From an uncultured Actinomycetes bacterium (lineage in GTDB: Bacteria > Actinomycetota > Actinomycetes > Nanopelagicales > Nanopelagicaceae), in NCBI GenBank assembly GCA_903897475.1, contig CAIUBS010000031.1, positions 1 to 37,778 of the forward strand: a stretch of 37,778 nt of DNA. The letters are read 5' to 3'. The stretch's first letter is position 1, and the number at the start of each line of letters is the position of its first letter. Below, in pieces: positions 13,728-35,660 of this stretch. Below the pieces are notes generated by a model, which had not been told where the DNA came from, searched no databases, and was given only the letters and a program-made list of their open reading frames with translations. Both the position numbers and the translations under genes were made by a program.

Positions 13728-14242
13728 AAAGAATCATCTTCAAATGCATAGCGAACTGGCAACGGAGCCTTTCCCGCCAATCTGAAGAGACGAATTATCC
13801 ATTGAGACCTTACATTTCTAGTTGCATTCACAGCTTCTAGGTGGATGTTAATTGCTAACTTCACTTTGCTGGTTAGATCCGATAATTCAACCAATAACTC
13901 TGACGGTAATTCCAAGGCATTATCTAAGGCAGCGTTTTGGACAAGTTTTAAGGACTCAGACAAGATGCTCTCGGCAGAAGATCGCTCAATAATATTGGCA
14001 TCCCTTGCTGCCGTAGCAGAGGTTGAAATTAAATAAGCCGTAGCCGGGTCCAAATTTGATTCAGCAACAATCTCTTGAGCAAGTGCGGCTCTTTTTTGTA
14101 GGAGAGAATCAAGAGTAGCCCACGAAGTTTCAACTCGGTGATGCAATCTATCTAAACGCGAAGCCGAGAAAGATAAGTACCAACCAATTAGTACGATAAA
14201 TAAGAGAACTGCTAAATTTTCAAGATTCATCGTCTGCTCCAA
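13724..14242 (-). CDS. LemA-like membrane-anchored coiled-coil protein
   Basis: Single N-terminal TM segment followed by RLDRLHHRVETSWATLDSLLQKRAALAQEI, LemA-like pattern; last gene of the lipid operon. Confidence 0.6.
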   Translation of the reverse strand: MEQTMNLENLAVLLFIVLIGWYLSFSASRLDRLHHRVETSWATLDSLLQKRAALAQEIVAESNLDPATAYLISTSATAARDANIIERSSAESILSESLKLVQNAALDNALELPSELLVELSDLTSKVKLAINIHLEAVNATRNVRSQWIIRLFRLAGKAPLPVRYAFEDDSL

Positions 14243-15387
14243 AATCTATTCTCGGAAGAAAGCGTAACTCTCTGCCCACCGGCGATAGCCATTTCGTACA
14301 CACTCTCGATTTGTTCTGCAACTACTTGCCAGTCATATTTTTGTGCACTTAGTTTGCCATTAGTTGCAAGTTTTTCTCTTCGAGCATCATCTCTTAAAAG
14401 AGCAACAATAACTTTGGCTAAATCTGAAGAATCTTCGTTTCTAAACAATGCGCCTACTTCACCATTTTCTAGAACAGCCTTAAATGCAGGTATATCACTT
14501 GCAACCACAGCTGTTCCCGCCGATAACGCCTCGGTAAGAATGATTCCAAATGACTCTCCGCCAGTATTCGGAGCTACGTAAATCTCGACTGATTTAAGGA
14601 AACTTTCCTTTTGTCTATCGCTTAACCTTCCAAGAAAAGTTATACGATTTTGCAGTTGGGGGTTTAAGTTTTTCACAAACTCATCGCTATCCCCAGGACC
14701 TGCTATCAAATACTTTACATCTGGTACAAACCTAGCAACTATTGCTAATGAATCAATTAAAACTTGCAAACCTTTGCGAGGCTCTTCAAATCTACCCATA
14801 AAGCCAATTGTGTTAGGGCCACTGAATTCTTTAGTTATAGGCGCATTGGCATATTTCTGGCCGTCAATCCCATTTGGAATTACAACTGCATCAGTGTCGA
14901 AATGATCCTTAAGAGTTGATCTAGCTAGCTCGCTTACAGCGATTCGAGCGGTTAGTTTTTCAACTATAGGCTCGAGAATGGGACCAATTGCATAAATAGC
15001 TTTCTTCTTGGGTGTTGAGACATGAAATGTTCCAACAAGTGGACCTTCTGCAGCTGAACAAGCCAATAAGGAAAGGGATGGAATTGCTGGTTCATGCAAG
15101 TGAAGTAAATCAAAATCACCAGATGCGATCCATTGCTTGGCTCTTGAACTAGCAAGTGGCCCGAACAAAACTCGAGCAACTGATCCATTTACCGGAATTG
15201 ATATTGGCTTTCCTGCATTGACCACATAATCTTCGAATGAAACTGCGTCATCACTAATTGGAGCTAGTATCGAAACAAAGTGGCCTTCGCCAATTAAATA
15301 CTCCGCCAAATCCCGCATGTGAGACTGAACTCCACCTGGAGTGTCCCAACCGTAGGGACAAACCATTCCTATTCTAATTTTCTTCAT
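14227..15387 (-). CDS. pimA: GT4 glycosyltransferase, phosphatidylinositol mannosyltransferase (PimA-like)
   Basis: IRIGMVCPYGWDTPGGVQSHMRDLAEYLIGEGH, FMGRFEEPRKGLQVL, APNTGGESFGIILTEALSAG. Confidence 0.85.
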   Translation of the reverse strand: MKKIRIGMVCPYGWDTPGGVQSHMRDLAEYLIGEGHFVSILAPISDDAVSFEDYVVNAGKPISIPVNGSVARVLFGPLASSRAKQWIASGDFDLLHLHEPAIPSLSLLACSAAEGPLVGTFHVSTPKKKAIYAIGPILEPIVEKLTARIAVSELARSTLKDHFDTDAVVIPNGIDGQKYANAPITKEFSGPNTIGFMGRFEEPRKGLQVLIDSLAIVARFVPDVKYLIAGPGDSDEFVKNLNPQLQNRITFLGRLSDRQKESFLKSVEIYVAPNTGGESFGIILTEALSAGTAVVASDIPAFKAVLENGEVGALFRNEDSSDLAKVIVALLRDDARREKLATNGKLSAQKYDWQVVAEQIESVYEMAIAGGQRVTLSSENRFWSRR

Positions 15388-16234
15388 CTATCCAAATCCG
15401 TTGCAACATATGCCAGTCAACTGGAGAGTCCTTAATTCGCTTAGCAAAATTATTGGCAATAGATTGGGTTACGATTTTAATTTGTTCCTCTTTAGTTCCA
15501 GATACGGGCAATTTTATCGTTTCATCAAAGGTAATTTCTATTCCTTTATCAAGGTAGCGAATATATGCAGTTAGTAATGGTGCACCACTTTCTATTGCCA
15601 AGATGGCAGGTCCAGAGGGCATTTTTGCCACCCCACCTAGGAAATCAACCTCTACACCACTTCTTGACATATCTCTGTCAGCAACTAGTGCAACAAGTTT
15701 TCCTGATCTTAATCGCTCTAGCAGAATCGGAATAGTTTTCTCTTTGTGGCTAATAGGTTCAATTCCGATAGAAGATCGGTAATCTAAAAATTTTCTAAAT
15801 ATCGCCTCTGGTTTTAATTTCTCAACTACAGCGGTCAAGGTTATTCCAGTTGAGCAAAAGTAAGCTGCGGCATGATCCCAATTCCCAGCATGAGGCAGAG
15901 CTACGATACAGCCTTTTTTTAACGCAATTGGATCACGCAGTAAATTTTCTCTAATTACATATGTAGTTTCAATAATTCTATTTTTGCTCCATTTATTTAA
16001 TCTAAAGGTATCAAACCAGTAACGTAAATAAGATCGCATTCCTAATTTTGTTAAATGATTTAGCTCTTTATCTGAGATTTCGGGTTTAACTCTTTTATAA
16101 TTACTTCTAAGACGCTTAACTCCTTTACTATTTTTCTTGAAGACAAAATCTGCTACAAAACTTGCCAGGGCGTAAGCTATCTTCTCAGGCAATATTCCAA
16201 TAAATTTCCAAGCAAATAGATAAAACAAATACAT
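15374..16234 (-). CDS. LpxL/HtrB-family lysophospholipid acyltransferase (phosphatidylinositol mannoside acyltransferase-like)
   Basis: GCIVALPHAGNWDHAAAYFCS..., VALVADRDMSRSGVEVDFLGG; position between pimA-like and pgsA-like genes. Confidence 0.82.
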   Translation of the reverse strand: MYLFYLFAWKFIGILPEKIAYALASFVADFVFKKNSKGVKRLRSNYKRVKPEISDKELNHLTKLGMRSYLRYWFDTFRLNKWSKNRIIETTYVIRENLLRDPIALKKGCIVALPHAGNWDHAAAYFCSTGITLTAVVEKLKPEAIFRKFLDYRSSIGIEPISHKEKTIPILLERLRSGKLVALVADRDMSRSGVEVDFLGGVAKMPSGPAILAIESGAPLLTAYIRYLDKGIEITFDETIKLPVSGTKEEQIKIVTQSIANNFAKRIKDSPVDWHMLQRIWIDEEN

Positions 16235-16830
16235 CAGCTCACCGCTTTATAGACAATCATCATCCTCTGATAAACAGTAAAAATTGAGATTAAAGTTACG
16301 ATCCATAAGCCAATCGCTAAGGCGTATTCAATACCTAAGCCATGTAGACCATATGCAATCAAAATAACAATCAATCTTTCACTGCGCTCAGCTAGTCCAC
16401 CATCGCACGTAATCGCTAAAGATTCTGCCCTAGCTTTTATATAGGAGACCATAAATGATGCAAATGCGGCAATTACAAAAAGAATAACAATTTGATCAGA
16501 TGACTCAAGAAAGTACAAAAGGCCTCCAATAAAAATTGCAGCATCACTTATTCGATCTAAAGTTGAATCTAATAAGGCTCCCCATTTACTTTCACCCTTG
16601 TTTGAGGCTCTGGCCACTGCGCCATCGAAAAGATCGGACAGTACAAAAAGTGAAACAAGTATTACACCAACAAAAAAATCACCTTTCGGAAAATAATAAA
16701 GGGAGGAGGCAATAGCTCCTAAGCCACCAAGTGTTGAGATCATATTTGCACTCACGCCTATTTTGACCAGTAAATTCACAATAGGGGAAATAATTTTGGC
16801 GACTGGATCGCGTAATGAACGCTGCAACAT
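16234..16830 (-). CDS. pgsA: CDP-alcohol phosphatidyltransferase (phosphatidylinositol phosphate synthase-like); the 17133 start in the ORF track is too long, ATG at 16830 or 16839 is likely
   Basis: DLFDGAVARASNKGESKWGALLDSTLDRISDA matches the CDP-alcohol phosphatidyltransferase motif; the region 16856-17133 is better explained by the opposite-strand ORF. Confidence 0.85.
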   Translation of the reverse strand: MLQRSLRDPVAKIISPIVNLLVKIGVSANMISTLGGLGAIASSLYYFPKGDFFVGVILVSLFVLSDLFDGAVARASNKGESKWGALLDSTLDRISDAAIFIGGLLYFLESSDQIVILFVIAAFASFMVSYIKARAESLAITCDGGLAERSERLIVILIAYGLHGLGIEYALAIGLWIVTLISIFTVYQRMMIVYKAVS

Positions 16831-16855
16831 AATTCCCATCGTAGGCTTACCACTG

Positions 16856-17446
16856 ATGAGTAACCTAATTAACGCACGGTTCATACTAGGAATATCTCCT
16901 GAGAATGAGCAGATTGGCGCCGTTCTGGGGTTACCGGTTGCTGAGATTGATGACCCAACTTTAATTACCGCAGATGTCGTGTTGGTAGTTGCAAGTGCTA
17001 AAAATGGAATCGATTCAAAAGTTTTATCTAATTGGCCAACTTTTCGTGAGCTATATATCCCAACAATTGTTCTAGTTACTGATTTTGAAGATGGGGATGT
17101 TGATTTTGAAGATATGAGCGCAATTGTGGGCAAGATGCTCGAACCAGTACTAACGCCATATTTAGTACTTCATGCCGATGATGGCCAACCAACTGCACTG
17201 ATTAATTTGGAGGATCAAATGATCACTGATTACTCATCTGGCAAAATTACCCAGATTCCAAGTGATAGTGAGCATCGCGAGCTGATCTTAGAGTTTAAAG
17301 AAGAGCTAGCCTCTGCACTTAGTGAAGGAGGCTGGGAACAGTTTGTTCAAGGATTAGTAATACCAGCAATCCCATTAATTATAAGAAACAAATTGGGCGT
17401 TGCAGAAGTAAAAAGATTTTTAGATTTGATTCCAACCAGAGGCTAG
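16856..17446 (+). CDS. Stand-alone degenerate EF-G/FusA-like G-domain protein, nucleotide-binding motifs lost
   Basis: MSNLINARFILGISPENEQIGAVLGLP... then ITADVVLVVASAKNGIDS..., VLVTDFEDGDVDFEDM, DGQPTALINLEDQMI..., FVQGLVIPAIPLIIRNKLGVAEVKRFLDLIPTRG align by eye with successive EF-G G/G'-domain segments; start moved to 16856 to clear pgsA. Confidence 0.6.
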   Translation: MSNLINARFILGISPENEQIGAVLGLPVAEIDDPTLITADVVLVVASAKNGIDSKVLSNWPTFRELYIPTIVLVTDFEDGDVDFEDMSAIVGKMLEPVLTPYLVLHADDGQPTALINLEDQMITDYSSGKITQIPSDSEHRELILEFKEELASALSEGGWEQFVQGLVIPAIPLIIRNKLGVAEVKRFLDLIPTRG

Positions 17447-17962
17447 TAATGCTCTGCTTTCCTGCAGTAACTGTGGAAGAACTTTTGTCTTACCTATTAT
17501 TGGCATAAAGTTTGCATCTCCTGCCCATCTTGGAACTATATGTTGATGAAAGTGGCCAGCAATCCCTGCCCCTGAAACACTGCCTTGATTAATTCCGATG
17601 TTAAAGCCAACTGCATTACTTACTTTTCTCAATACTTTCATAGCATGAGCGGTAATACTGGTTACTTCATTTTGTTCTGATGTGGTTAACTCTGGAAGTT
17701 CTGCCACATGTCGATTTGTGCAAATCAGAAGGTGGCCAGCGTTATAGGGGTAAAGATTCATCACCGCATACACATCTTTGCCACGAAAAACTATTAATGC
17801 TTCTTCATCACTTAATTTTGGAATTCGACAAAATGGACATTCGATTGTATTTCCAGGTAACGGTCTATTTTCACCCTCCAAATATGACATCCTATGAGGT
17901 GCCCAAAGTCGCTGCCAATTATCGGGCATTCCGGCTCCGCCAGAGATTGATTTATCTGACAT
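17420..17962 (-). CDS. HIT-family protein (Ap4A phosphorylase/hydrolase-like)
   Basis: CPFCRIP..., NLYPYNAGHLLICTNRHVAEL, GIAGHFHQHIVPRW. Confidence 0.93.
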   Translation of the reverse strand: MSDKSISGGAGMPDNWQRLWAPHRMSYLEGENRPLPGNTIECPFCRIPKLSDEEALIVFRGKDVYAVMNLYPYNAGHLLICTNRHVAELPELTTSEQNEVTSITAHAMKVLRKVSNAVGFNIGINQGSVSGAGIAGHFHQHIVPRWAGDANFMPIIGKTKVLPQLLQESRALLASGWNQI

Positions 17963-19957
17963 TTATATTTGAGTGCGATCTCTGATTGCAGATAAAACTT
18001 CAGCTATTGCGTCTTTGATCTGTATTTGATTCTTCTGCTCACCATTACGGTAGCGAAATGAAACTGCGTTAGCATTTTGATCATCCTCACCGGCAATCAT
18101 CATGAATGGGACTTTTTCTAACTGAGCATTTCTAACCTTTTTTTGCATTCGATCATCAGAGGTATCAATATCTACTCTTATTCCAGCTTCTCTAAACTGC
18201 TTAACCACCTCTGATAAATATGGCGTGAAAGAATCAGCGACAGGAATTGCTCTGACTTGAACTGGAGCCAACCATGGCGGAAAGGCGCCGGCATAGTGCT
18301 CGGTCAGTACGCCAAAAAATCTTTCGATTGAGCCAAAGAGTGCTCTATGAATCATGACTGGTTGCTTAATCGATCCATCAGATGCGGCATAACCTAAATT
18401 AAATCTCTGTGGCAATTGAAAATCCACTTGAATTGTGGACATCTGCCAGGTGCGACCAATGGCATCTTTTGCTTGCACTGAGATCTTTGGTCCGTAAAAT
18501 GCTGCACCACCTGGATCTAAAACTAACTCTAGCTTCTGTTTTTCTGCAGCCTGGCGTAAAGCCTCAGTAGCACTCTCCCAATCCTTATCTTCACCGACAG
18601 ATTTTTCTGGATTCTTTGTAGAAAGCTCCAAATAAAAATCAGTTAAGCCATAATCTCTCAATAAATTAAGTACAAAGGTAAGCAATGAATCTAGCTCATC
18701 TGCCATCTGCTCTTTCGTGCAATATATATGTGCATCATCTTGGGTAAAGCCACGAGCCCTAGTGATGCCATGGACTACCCCAGATTTTTCATATCTATAG
18801 ACGGTACCGAATTCAAATAATCTAAGTGGTAAATCTCGATAGGATTTTGAGGAGGATTTATAAATTAAATTATGAAAGGGGCAGTTCATCGGCTTCATGT
18901 AATACTTTTGTCCTGCTTTTTTTAATGTTCCATCTGCATGAAACTCTTGATCCATCTCCATTGGTGGATACATACCATCTGCATACCATTGCAAATGACC
19001 GCTGGTTTCAAATAGTGCCGCCTTAGTTAGGTGAGGTGAATATACAAATTGGTAATCCTCTTCTTCATGCCTTTTCCGAGAGTAATCCTCCATCGCTCTT
19101 CGAATAATCCCACCTTTGGGATGAAAAACAGCTAGGCCTGAACCAATCTCTTCTGGAAATGAAAACAAATCTAGCTCTGCACCCAATTTTCTATGGTCAC
19201 GCTTTTCTGCCTCTTCTAATAAATGCAAGTACTCATCCTGAGCTTGCTGGCTTGGCCAAGCCGTTCCATAAATTCGTTGCAGCATAGGATTTTTTTCTGA
19301 GCCTCGCCAATATGCTCCTGCTGCTCGCATTAATTTAAAAGCAGGAATGTGTTTTGTTGATGGCAAATGAGGACCACGACAAAGATCACTCCAAACAGGA
19401 TTTCCATCTCTACCCAAATTGTCGTAAATTGTTAACTCCGCACCGCCGACCTCTACAGATGAGTCGCCTTCGATCGCGCTAGACTTTAAACCAATTAATT
19501 CACATTTATAAGGCTCACTCTTTAACTCCGCTAGTGCATCCTTTTCAGTTACTACCCTCCTACGAAATCTCTGTCCAGCTTTAACGATTTTTCGCATGGC
19601 ACTTTCTAACTTCTCTAAGTCAGAAGGTGTAAAAGGATTTTTAGGATCAAAGTCGTAGTAGAAACCATCCCGAATTGGCGGACCAATGCCCAATTTGGTC
19701 TCTGGAAATACCTCTTGAACTGCTTGAGCTAACACATGTGCAGTTGAGTGGCGTAAGACATTAAGTCCATCGGGTGAATCAATACTGACTGATTCAACTA
19801 CATCTGAATCGTTTAGTGGGCTCCATAAATCTTGCAGTTGTCCGTTAATACGACAAACGATGACTTCAGGTCGATCCTCAAACAGGTGAGTAGGTCTTTT
19901 ATCTGAATCTACAGTGGCGGCTTTGCCATCAACTGTGATCTTGATTTGGCCTGACAT
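17963..19957 (-). CDS. thrS: Threonyl-tRNA synthetase
   Basis: TGS domain, [50 protein letters not shown]. Confidence 0.97.
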
Positions 19958-33585: not shown

Positions 33586-34380
33586 TTAGAACCTAGATCT
33601 AATCTCCCATAAATCTGCAAAGACTGGTTTAAATAAAGTGGAGCTTAAATAATCTACGCCACTAGACCCACCTGTTCCCATTTTTTTACCAATAGTTCGC
33701 TCGACCATCTTCACATGACGATAGCGCCACTCCTGTAGACCTTCATCAATATCAACTAATCTCTCGCAGACCATTGCCGTCTGTGGATCACTTTGATGCA
33801 GCTTTAGTAAAACATCCTGCACCTGTTCATTTGATGAGTAGGCAATAGATTTATCGCGAGTTAATACTTCTTTGGGAATTTGATGTCCGCGTTTAGTTAC
33901 AAACTCAAGAGTTGAATCCCAAATCGAATTTTGCTTGGTAAGGGATTTAATTTCTTCTGCGACCTTTGGGGGTAAATGGCTAGCTAATTTGCTATCGCGT
34001 CTTCCAAGTAAAGCTTCCACCATTCTAAATTGAGCCGATTGAAACCCACTTGAAGAAGAAAGATAGGAGCGAAAGGCGTTGAATTGCAGCGGAGTCATCG
34101 TTTCTAAGATATCTATCTGGGCCACACAGAGTTTTAATATCGTGCGAATTCTTCCTAAAATCGATAGCGAATAATGGGTATCACCAGCCTCTAGCGCTGA
34201 CTGGGCTTGTTTGAACTCATGAATTAACTGCTTAAACCAAAGCTCATAAGTTTGATGAATAATGATAAACAGCATCTCATCATGCTCTGGACCTGTCGAT
34301 AATGGCCTTTGAAGTTTTAATAATTCATCTACTGCAAGGTAGGAGTTATAGGTAAGTGCGGATTCGTATTTTTCACTCAT
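33586..34380 (-). CDS. kynA: Tryptophan 2,3-dioxygenase
   Basis: TYNSYLAVDELLKLQRPLS, HDEMLFIIIHQTYELWFKQLIHE, WRYRHVKMVERTIGKKMGTGGSSGVDYL. Confidence 0.96.
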   Translation of the reverse strand: MSEKYESALTYNSYLAVDELLKLQRPLSTGPEHDEMLFIIIHQTYELWFKQLIHEFKQAQSALEAGDTHYSLSILGRIRTILKLCVAQIDILETMTPLQFNAFRSYLSSSSGFQSAQFRMVEALLGRRDSKLASHLPPKVAEEIKSLTKQNSIWDSTLEFVTKRGHQIPKEVLTRDKSIAYSSNEQVQDVLLKLHQSDPQTAMVCERLVDIDEGLQEWRYRHVKMVERTIGKKMGTGGSSGVDYLSSTLFKPVFADLWEIRSRF

Positions 34381-35660
34381 GTGACTCTTGAACCACTTTC
34401 TTTAACTCCCTTGTACTTACCACTTGAAACCAGATCTCTGATTCGCTCAAAGCCATCCCATACTTCAACATATGAGGTAGCAAGGGGTGAAATTGCTAGG
34501 CGAATTGAGTTGGGCGTTCGATAATCTGGAATAACTTTAGAAATACTTCGCAGCGCAATGCAGATCTGAGCAGCATCTGGATGAACCAATGAAATATGTC
34601 CGCCACGATATTGAGATTGTCTTGGCGTATTTAATTCAAACCCCAACGGCTTTAGCCAATGGTCAAATAGATCAATCATCAAAGTAGTGCCAATTGTTGC
34701 CTTCTTGGCGATCTCACTGATGCCTGCCTCTTGAATCAAGTTAAAAGCAGTTTGTACACAGCGAATTCCAATAAGTGAAGGTGATGCAATTTGAAATCCG
34801 CGAATGCTCTGCGCCCTTTCAAATTTTGGACCCATTTCAAATTGGGCCTCTTGCGCAAACCATCCCTGAATTGGAACCTGCAATTGGTTTTGAATGCGCT
34901 TTGAAACATATAGCCAGGCGGGTGATCCTGGGCCGGAATTACCATACTTGTATGTACAACCAACGCAAAGATCAGCACCTGAGTGATCTAAATTTAATTC
35001 AATTGCCCCAACTGCATGACTTGCATCCCAGACAACTAATCCGCCTACTGCTCTAACTTGATCAGTTATAGCTTTAATATCCGTTCTAGCTCCTGAGCGA
35101 TACTGAATCACTTGAAATGTAACTAATGCAACATCTTCATTCAAATATGGAGCTAAAACCTCAGTTGTAATTCGTTCATTGGTTGCAATCTTTGGATCTT
35201 CGTTATCAATAATTACAAGTTTTAATCCCAGTTGTTCGGCTATACCTTCTAAAATGTATCGATCTGTTGGAAAATTAGCTGCATCTGTAATTATGGTTTT
35301 ACGATCTGGCTTAGATCTAATTGCCGCTAAACAGAGTTGATAAAAATTAACTGAAGTTGTATCGCAAACTAGCACTTGACCAGTAGCTGCTCCCAGTGCT
35401 GATTTACCCAAAAGATCACCAGTGGGCTGGGCTTCATCTACCCAATGGCTCCAGCCAGAGACCAACTCTGGTCCCCACTCTTTTTGTAGAAAATCATTTA
35501 CTGCTGTGATAGTGCGTTTGGGCAATCTGCCAAGTGAATTTCCATCTAAATAACAAAGAGTTGGGTCTTCAACAACAAACTCAGATTTATACTTTGCTAA
35601 AGGATCCTTACTGTCTAGATCCAACGCGTATTGACGATCTATCGGATTAGATTTATCCAT
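34377..35660 (-). CDS. kynU: Kynureninase
   Basis: YLDGNSLGRLPK, WDASHAVGAIELNLDHSGADLCVGCTYKYGNSGPGSPAWLYV, RGGHISLVHPDA. Confidence 0.95.
   Translation of the reverse strand: MDKSNPIDRQYALDLDSKDPLAKYKSEFVVEDPTLCYLDGNSLGRLPKRTITAVNDFLQKEWGPELVSGWSHWVDEAQPTGDLLGKSALGAATGQVLVCDTTSVNFYQLCLAAIRSKPDRKTIITDAANFPTDRYILEGIAEQLGLKLVIIDNEDPKIATNERITTEVLAPYLNEDVALVTFQVIQYRSGARTDIKAITDQVRAVGGLVVWDASHAVGAIELNLDHSGADLCVGCTYKYGNSGPGSPAWLYVSKRIQNQLQVPIQGWFAQEAQFEMGPKFERAQSIRGFQIASPSLIGIRCVQTAFNLIQEAGISEIAKKATIGTTLMIDLFDHWLKPLGFELNTPRQSQYRGGHISLVHPDAAQICIALRSISKVIPDYRTPNSIRLAISPLATSYVEVWDGFERIRDLVSSGKYKGVKESGSRVT

What the first reader, a model, noticed from the sequence alone, without database searches (positions are those of the whole stretch)
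16856..17446. Stand-alone EF-G-like G-domain with its GTP-binding motifs erased, divergent from pgsA
Seen directly: the ~196 aa product tracks segment by segment with an EF-G G/G' domain. FILGISPENEQIGAVLGL sits where a P-loop such as VLVGHSGAGKTTLVEALL would be (GK[ST] replaced by NEQ). ADVVLVVASAKNGIDS sits at the DGAVxVxDAVxGVE strand. IVLVTDFEDGDVDFEDM sits at the NKxD segment (NKMD replaced by TDFE). VIPAIPLIIRNKLGVAEVKRFLDLIPTRG matches the end of the G domain ([29 protein letters not shown]-like). About 40 residues covering switch I and DTPGH are missing, and domains II-V are absent, yet the ORF is intact with no stops. I recall, unverified, that some actinobacteria carry an intact EF-G-like paralog at this pgsA/HIT/thrS locus. 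If so, this would be a reduced pseudo-GTPase kept after loss of the translocase body. Such proteins could act as ribosome- or lipid-operon-associated regulators, but that function is speculation.
Basis: partly seen in the sequence, partly recalled or inferred. Interest (0 to 1): 0.7.

Follow-up and report, generated by a model that had tools for sequence, protein, structure and literature searches.

The report
Shrunken, non-GTPase relic of EF-G2
Tiny freshwater actinobacteria of the order Nanopelagicales keep, under strong selection, only a fragment of an accessory translation factor (EF-G2) from which the whole GTP-binding machinery and four of five domains have been deleted, so a former GTPase seems to survive purely as a binding protein of unknown role.

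Summary
The 196-aa ORF (ATG 16856 to stop 17446) is a positional orthologue of actinobacterial EF-G2. The gene order thrS-HIT-[this gene, antisense]-pgsA-acyltransferase-PimA is the same in other actinomycete families, where the slot holds a ~715-aa EF-G2. Profile comparison (E 4e-24), an AlphaFold model (pLDDT 89) and Foldseek (top hits EF-G, including ribosome-bound M. smegmatis EF-G2) agree. No P-loop or DxPG occurs in any of 78 aligned members, and [NT]KxD matches in one. Switch I/II, part of G' and domains II-V are gone. It is not decaying: 147 of 150 genomes of the order have it, no match holds a stop, and dN/dS is ~0.10, like pgsA. Transitional forms exist: one genus keeps full-length EF-G2, another a ~325-aa version. 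New here: a near-invariant 10-mer, ATCGTAGGCT, between the divergent starts reads as two overlapping -10 boxes, a shared leaderless bidirectional promoter with pgsA. Function is unproven. My best guess is nucleotide-independent docking through the retained acidic G' surface, possibly on the ribosomal L7/L12 stalk (about 0.35).

The parts
16856..17446 (+). Reduced EF-G2 (mini-EF-G2): 196 aa, G-domain remnant (b1-a1, b4, a3, b5, a4, b6, a5) plus reduced G' subdomain; no GTP-binding motifs; domains II-V absent
16877..16927 (+). Codons 8-24: position of b1 / former P-loop / a1 (RFILGISPENEQIGAVL); other genera still read ..YGHPSA.. or ..LIGHSTADL.. where EF-G2 has LVGHSGSGKTT
17150..17263 (+). Codons 99-136: G' beta-sheet block LTPYLVLHADDGQPTALINLE...ITDYS, the longest near-invariant stretch of the family
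17264..17350 (+). Codons 137-165: acidic G' helices (EHRELILEFKEEL...); F147 invariant, E139, H140 and E150 near-invariant
16838..16847 (.). ATCGTAGGCT: overlapping -10 boxes, TAGGCT (+) for this gene and TACGAT (-) for pgsA; putative leaderless bidirectional promoter
16234..16830 (-). pgsA (CDP-alcohol phosphatidyltransferase family), divergent neighbour; likely start at ATG 16830 (MLQRSL..) rather than 16839
17420..17962 (-). HIT-family protein, convergent neighbour; its 3' end overlaps this gene by 27 nt
17963..19957 (-). thrS, threonyl-tRNA synthetase, flanking synteny marker
15374..16234 (-). acyltransferase (PatA-like by position), flanking synteny marker
14227..15387 (-). PimA-like glycosyltransferase, flanking synteny marker

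Best explanation
The gene is the Nanopelagicales orthologue of actinobacterial EF-G2, reduced from about 715 to about 196 residues. Shown: the catalytic motifs (P-loop, switch I, DxPG/switch II, [NT]KxD) and domains II-V have been lost; half a G-domain core and a trimmed, acidic G' subdomain remain; the protein is under strong purifying selection. Inferred: it is made from a leaderless bidirectional promoter shared with pgsA, folds as a compact G/G' remnant that cannot bind or hydrolyse GTP, and works by nucleotide-independent protein binding inherited from EF-G2. The most likely partner is the ribosomal L7/L12 stalk, which contacts the G' acidic helix in EF-G, or another ribosome-bound partner of EF-G2. 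This last step I put at about 0.35; the identity and the loss of the GTPase motifs at about 0.95.
For: Identical synteny with full-length EF-G2 in the same slot and orientation in other families. All 78 aligned members match NF009377; hhalign E 3.7e-24 vs full-length L079. AlphaFold pLDDT 88.6 and 91.3 for two members only 35% identical; Foldseek top hits are EF-G/EF-G2, E 5e-11 and 1e-12, TM about 0.7-0.8. No GxxxxGK[ST] or DxPG in 78, one [NT]KxD match; P-loop and DxPG present in 31 of 31 full-length EF-G2. dN/dS median 0.10 over 81 pairs; pgsA 0.115, acyltransferase 0.09, HIT 0.07, thrS 0.04. Complete genomes with the short form hold one canonical EF-G beside EF-Tu and no second full-length EF-G. 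The a4 helix, G' sheet and acidic helices are the best conserved parts and net charge stays near -19 as in EF-G2. EF-G2 of M. smegmatis binds the 70S ribosome (9k0z title) although no ribosome-dependent GTPase was seen (PMC3832671). Acidic G' residues contact L7/L12 in EF-G (PMC8446442; PMC3150367).
Against: No expression, binding or phenotype data. Of the three EF-G acidic residues named for L7/L12 contact, none sits at a strictly conserved column here; the conserved acids (E139, E146, E150) lie earlier in the helices by my own alignment. The N-terminal 35 residues are poorly conserved, so b1/P-loop homology rests on other genera and on the models. The trimmed G' could equally have acquired a new partner.
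Confidence: 0.8

Rival explanations
1. Selected protein with a new, non-ribosomal role, for example a partner or regulator of the phosphatidylinositol / PIM pathway proteins (PgsA, acyltransferase, PimA) with which it appears to be co-expressed.
For: Near-invariant putative promoter shared with pgsA and fixed synteny with the lipid genes; the switch regions that normally contact the ribosome are lost.
Against: The synteny predates the reduction: full-length EF-G2 sits in the same place in other families, so the neighbourhood is inherited. No lipid- or membrane-linked feature was seen in the predicted fold.
Confidence: 0.3
2. Decaying pseudogene of EF-G2.
For: Large losses of domains and motifs; faster evolution than thrS.
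Against: Open in 147 of 150 genomes of 15 genera, no stop inside any match; dN/dS about 0.10; 13 invariant residues across 78 sequences; confident compact fold.
Confidence: 0.02
3. Kept for a DNA or RNA reason: the reading frame protects the bidirectional promoter, or its transcript acts as antisense to HIT, while the protein itself is dispensable.
For: Extremely conserved promoter-like 10-mer between the divergent starts; convergent 27-nt overlap with HIT in this genome.
Against: Purifying selection acts on amino acids through a frame that overlaps a neighbour only in its last 27 nt. The strongest conservation is in the G' block, far from the promoter.
Confidence: 0.05
4. Still a nucleotide-binding protein that uses migrated or replaced residues.
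For: Pseudoenzymes may have migrated residues and keep ligand binding (PMC10211241, by abstract); a few lineages keep TKIE at the G4 position.
Against: The P-loop, both switches and the DxPG strand are all gone, and the guanine-specificity motif is eroded in nearly all members.
Confidence: 0.05

Closest known systems
Actinobacterial EF-G2 (fusA2; EFG II subfamily; NCBIfam NF009377; M. smegmatis EF-G2, PDB 9k0z/9k10)
   Same: Same genomic slot and orientation (in most families examined), homologous G core and G' region, same acidic character; the M. smegmatis protein already showed no ribosome-dependent GTPase (PMC3832671).
   Different: Here about 196 aa instead of about 715; P-loop, switches and [NT]KxD lost; part of G' and domains II-V absent.
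Thermus thermophilus EF-G-2 (PDB 1wdt/2dy1)
   Same: Best non-actinobacterial sequence match and among the top structural matches.
   Different: Full five-domain protein; ribosome-dependent GTPase according to PMC3832671.
~325-aa EF-G2 of genus g5 (G028, G110, G154; loci L080-L082)
   Same: Same slot, P-loop and switches lost, same order.
   Different: Keeps the G' helical segment and a C-terminal tail that weakly resembles domain V (2 to 31 of 1000 shuffles score as high).
pseudoGTPase domains of p190RhoGAP
   Same: GTPase-like fold described as a pseudoGTPase (PMC5593906, by title and abstract).
   Different: Domains inside a large eukaryotic RhoGAP protein; not a translation factor.

Membership tests
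EF-G2 / EFG II (NF009377) | Five-domain architecture, about 700 aa | tested here: not met
   196 aa; only the profile's G/G' part is matched
EF-G2 / EFG II (NF009377) | Score over the curated cut-off (890 bits) | tested here: not met
   40 bits
EF-G2 / EFG II (NF009377) | Orthologous position thrS-HIT-X-pgsA-acylT-PimA | tested here: met
EF-G2 / EFG II (NF009377) | Homology of the G'-containing domain I | tested here: met
   hhalign E 3.7e-24; 78 of 78 members; Foldseek
Translational GTPase (Pfam GTP_EFTU) | G1 P-loop GxxxxGK[ST] | tested here: not met
   0 of 78 members
Translational GTPase (Pfam GTP_EFTU) | G3 DxPG and switch I / switch II | tested here: not met
   DxPG 0 of 78; region deleted in the alignment
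Translational GTPase (Pfam GTP_EFTU) | G4 [NT]KxD | tested here: not met
   TDFE in the window protein; one pattern match among 78 members
Translational GTPase (Pfam GTP_EFTU) | GTP binding and hydrolysis | not testable with these tools
   needs biochemistry
L7/L12-stalk binding factor | Acidic G' helix A | tested here: inconclusive
   Helix present and acidic (median 8 acidic residues in 137-166), but the exact EF-G contact residues are not strictly kept
L7/L12-stalk binding factor | Physical binding to the ribosome or L12 | not testable with these tools
   needs experiment

The most novel reading that the evidence does not exclude
A stand-alone, nucleotide-independent remnant of a translocase-like GTPase acts on the ribosome of abundant freshwater bacteria, for example by occupying the L7/L12 stalk to throttle GTPase recruitment. 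It would show that the selected function of the enigmatic EF-G2 lies in its G/G' region and not in GTP hydrolysis or translocation.
Probability: 0.3. Interest if true: 0.85.

Novelty: new variant of a known kind. Interest (0 to 1): 0.62.

Why it matters
The role of EF-G2 in actinobacteria is unknown. Here evolution has done a deletion analysis: in a whole order of streamlined genomes only the G/G' remnant is kept, under selection, without any GTPase motif. That points to the selected part of EF-G2 function and gives a small, expressible protein to test it with. Nothing found in Pfam, NCBIfam or the papers searched describes a translation factor reduced to a non-catalytic G/G' stub.

Tried and rejected
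Pseudogene: rejected. Viral or mobile origin: the scan of viral contigs gave no relative. A different protein family by chance: rejected, since Pfam and NCBIfam scans of 78 members give translation-factor GTPase models and nothing else credible. Domain V remnant in the ~325-aa forms: only weakly supported, so not claimed as shown. Single versus two independent reductions: the tree groups the full-length and ~325-aa genera together with 88/78 support, but a tree with the ~325-aa forms beside the short ones is not rejected (AU p 0.24), so left open; the short forms themselves are one clade (100/100). The sigma-70 consensus scan found no promoter; it demands a -35 box, so the -10-only arrangement was examined separately. 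A paper on 9k0z was not found.

Full report
What is there. The ORF runs from ATG 16856 to the stop ending at 17446 and encodes 196 aa. A single-sequence search gives a weak but specific EF-G2 signal (NF009377, E 1.4e-10, only profile positions 99-216), the Thermus EF-G-2 structure, and no significant Pfam hit.

Same gene as EF-G2. In most of the 20 loci taken from other actinomycete families pgsA lies beside a long EF-G-like ORF; where the flanks are complete the order is thrS-HIT-[gene, opposite strand]-pgsA-acyltransferase-PimA. L103, L115 and L118 show no pgsA nearby, so EF-G2 is elsewhere in those genomes. In Nanopelagicales the same slot holds the short gene. hhalign of the family against a full-length EF-G2 gives E 3.7e-24 over 123 columns. 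The profile finds M. smegmatis EF-G2 (9k0z) at 1.6e-14. All 78 members match NF009377.

Structure. AlphaFold models of the window protein (pLDDT 88.6, pTM 0.87) and of a deep-branching member 35% identical to it (91.3, 0.89) are confident. Foldseek returns EF-G-type structures (EF-G, EF-G2, RF3) throughout the top of both lists, including EF-G2 on the M. smegmatis 70S ribosome. The window model has b1, a1, b4, a3, b5, a4, the G' sheet and helices, b6 and a5; the stretch with switch I and switch II is gone (about 60 residues shorter than EF-G2).

No GTPase motifs. Across 78 members there is no GxxxxGK[ST], no DxPG, and one [NT]KxD match; 31 of 31 full-length EF-G2 have the P-loop and DxPG. Several genera still read YGHPSA or LIGHSTADL where EF-G2 reads LVGHSGSGKTT, a visible scar of the P-loop.

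Not a pseudogene. A match is found in 147 of 150 genomes of the order, all 15 genera, none with an internal stop. dN/dS within the genus (Nei-Gojobori) has median 0.10 (81 pairs with dS under 2), against 0.115 for pgsA, 0.09 for the acyltransferase, 0.07 for HIT and 0.04 for thrS. The frame overlaps a neighbour only in its last 27 nt.

Transitional forms. One genus of the same family (G174) keeps a 724-aa EF-G2 with GHSGSGKTT, DTPGY and TKLD in the same slot. Another (G028, G110, G154) has a ~325-aa version, already without P-loop and switches but with the G' helices and a tail that may be domain V (weak). The short forms are one clade, 100/100 on a tree of five neighbouring proteins; whether the ~325-aa form shares their reduction is unresolved. 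Complete genomes with the short form hold one canonical EF-G next to EF-Tu and no other full-length EF-G. The window's own assembly is 78% complete and its canonical EF-G was not found.

Shared promoter. Between the divergent starts lies ATCGTAGGCT (16838-16847), once in the window (0.04 expected). In the named-genome set (L119-L198) 71 of the 78 loci whose start region is present have the exact 10-mer and the other 7 keep AT-NN-TA-NNN-T (my count from those tables). These are the closest 80 relatives, so the figure is biased, and some deeper genera (L083-L086) lack the motif. Spacing is mostly 6-8 nt to the start of this gene and to that of pgsA. It reads as TAGGCT for this gene and TACGAT for pgsA on the other strand, sharing TA. 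In this window 8 of 36 genes have TANNNT exactly 6 nt before the start, against 0 to 3 at other spacings, so leaderless starts look common. Bidirectional promoters made of pseudo-symmetrical sequence are known in prokaryotes (PMC12825309, by abstract). The motif was not found at the loci with full-length EF-G2.

How it may work. EF-G2 of M. smegmatis showed no ribosome-dependent GTPase (PMC3832671) yet was solved on the 70S ribosome (9k0z title). In EF-G the acidic G' residues contact the L7/L12 stalk (PMC8446442, PMC3150367). The stub keeps the G' sheet and an acidic helix, and its charge (-19 in the comparable region, same as EF-G2). So nucleotide-independent docking is the simplest inherited function. 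This is inference; a lipid-pathway partner, suggested by the shared promoter with pgsA, is the main rival. The synteny predates the reduction and so gives that rival no extra support, but the tight promoter was seen only with the short form.

Distribution and names. Named relatives are MAGs, single-cell genomes and genomes labelled Nanopelagicaceae, Nanopelagicales, Nanopelagicus, acI or unclassified Actinobacteria; a few labels (Bifidobacterium breve, Streptomycetaceae) are probably wrong. The scan used one degenerate pattern, so more distant relatives may be missed.

Noticed in passing
16838-16847: ATCGTAGGCT, near-invariant in most genera of the order, reads as overlapping -10 boxes of a leaderless bidirectional promoter for pgsA and this gene; conservation exceeds a plain TANNNT box, so a regulator may also bind.
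   Followed up: partly
16830 vs 16839: pgsA start is probably ATG 16830 (MLQRSL), 7 nt after its -10 box, not the upstream ATG at 16839.
   Followed up: partly
window, 36 genes: TANNNT 6 nt upstream of the start codon in 8 of 36 genes: leaderless transcripts look common in this organism.
   Followed up: partly
codons 1-7 of the gene (16856-16876): The N-terminus is variable, yet a short (N/D/S)LI stretch recurs across several genera; it may reflect a pgsA -35 region lying inside this coding sequence.
   Followed up: no
L080-L082 (G028, G110, G154): ~325-aa intermediate EF-G2 with a possible domain V remnant directly after the G domain, domains II-IV apparently deleted.
   Followed up: partly
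G040, G196 (family f5): Another small-genome family shows no full-length EF-G2 and, in the one genome searched for it (G040), no stub: a possible independent complete loss.
   Followed up: no
G155 and G015: Two copies each (in G155 one of a different genus type): probably mixed bins.
   Followed up: no
33586-35660: Tryptophan 2,3-dioxygenase-like and kynureninase-like genes in a streamlined genome (annotation from reading, not searched).
   Followed up: no
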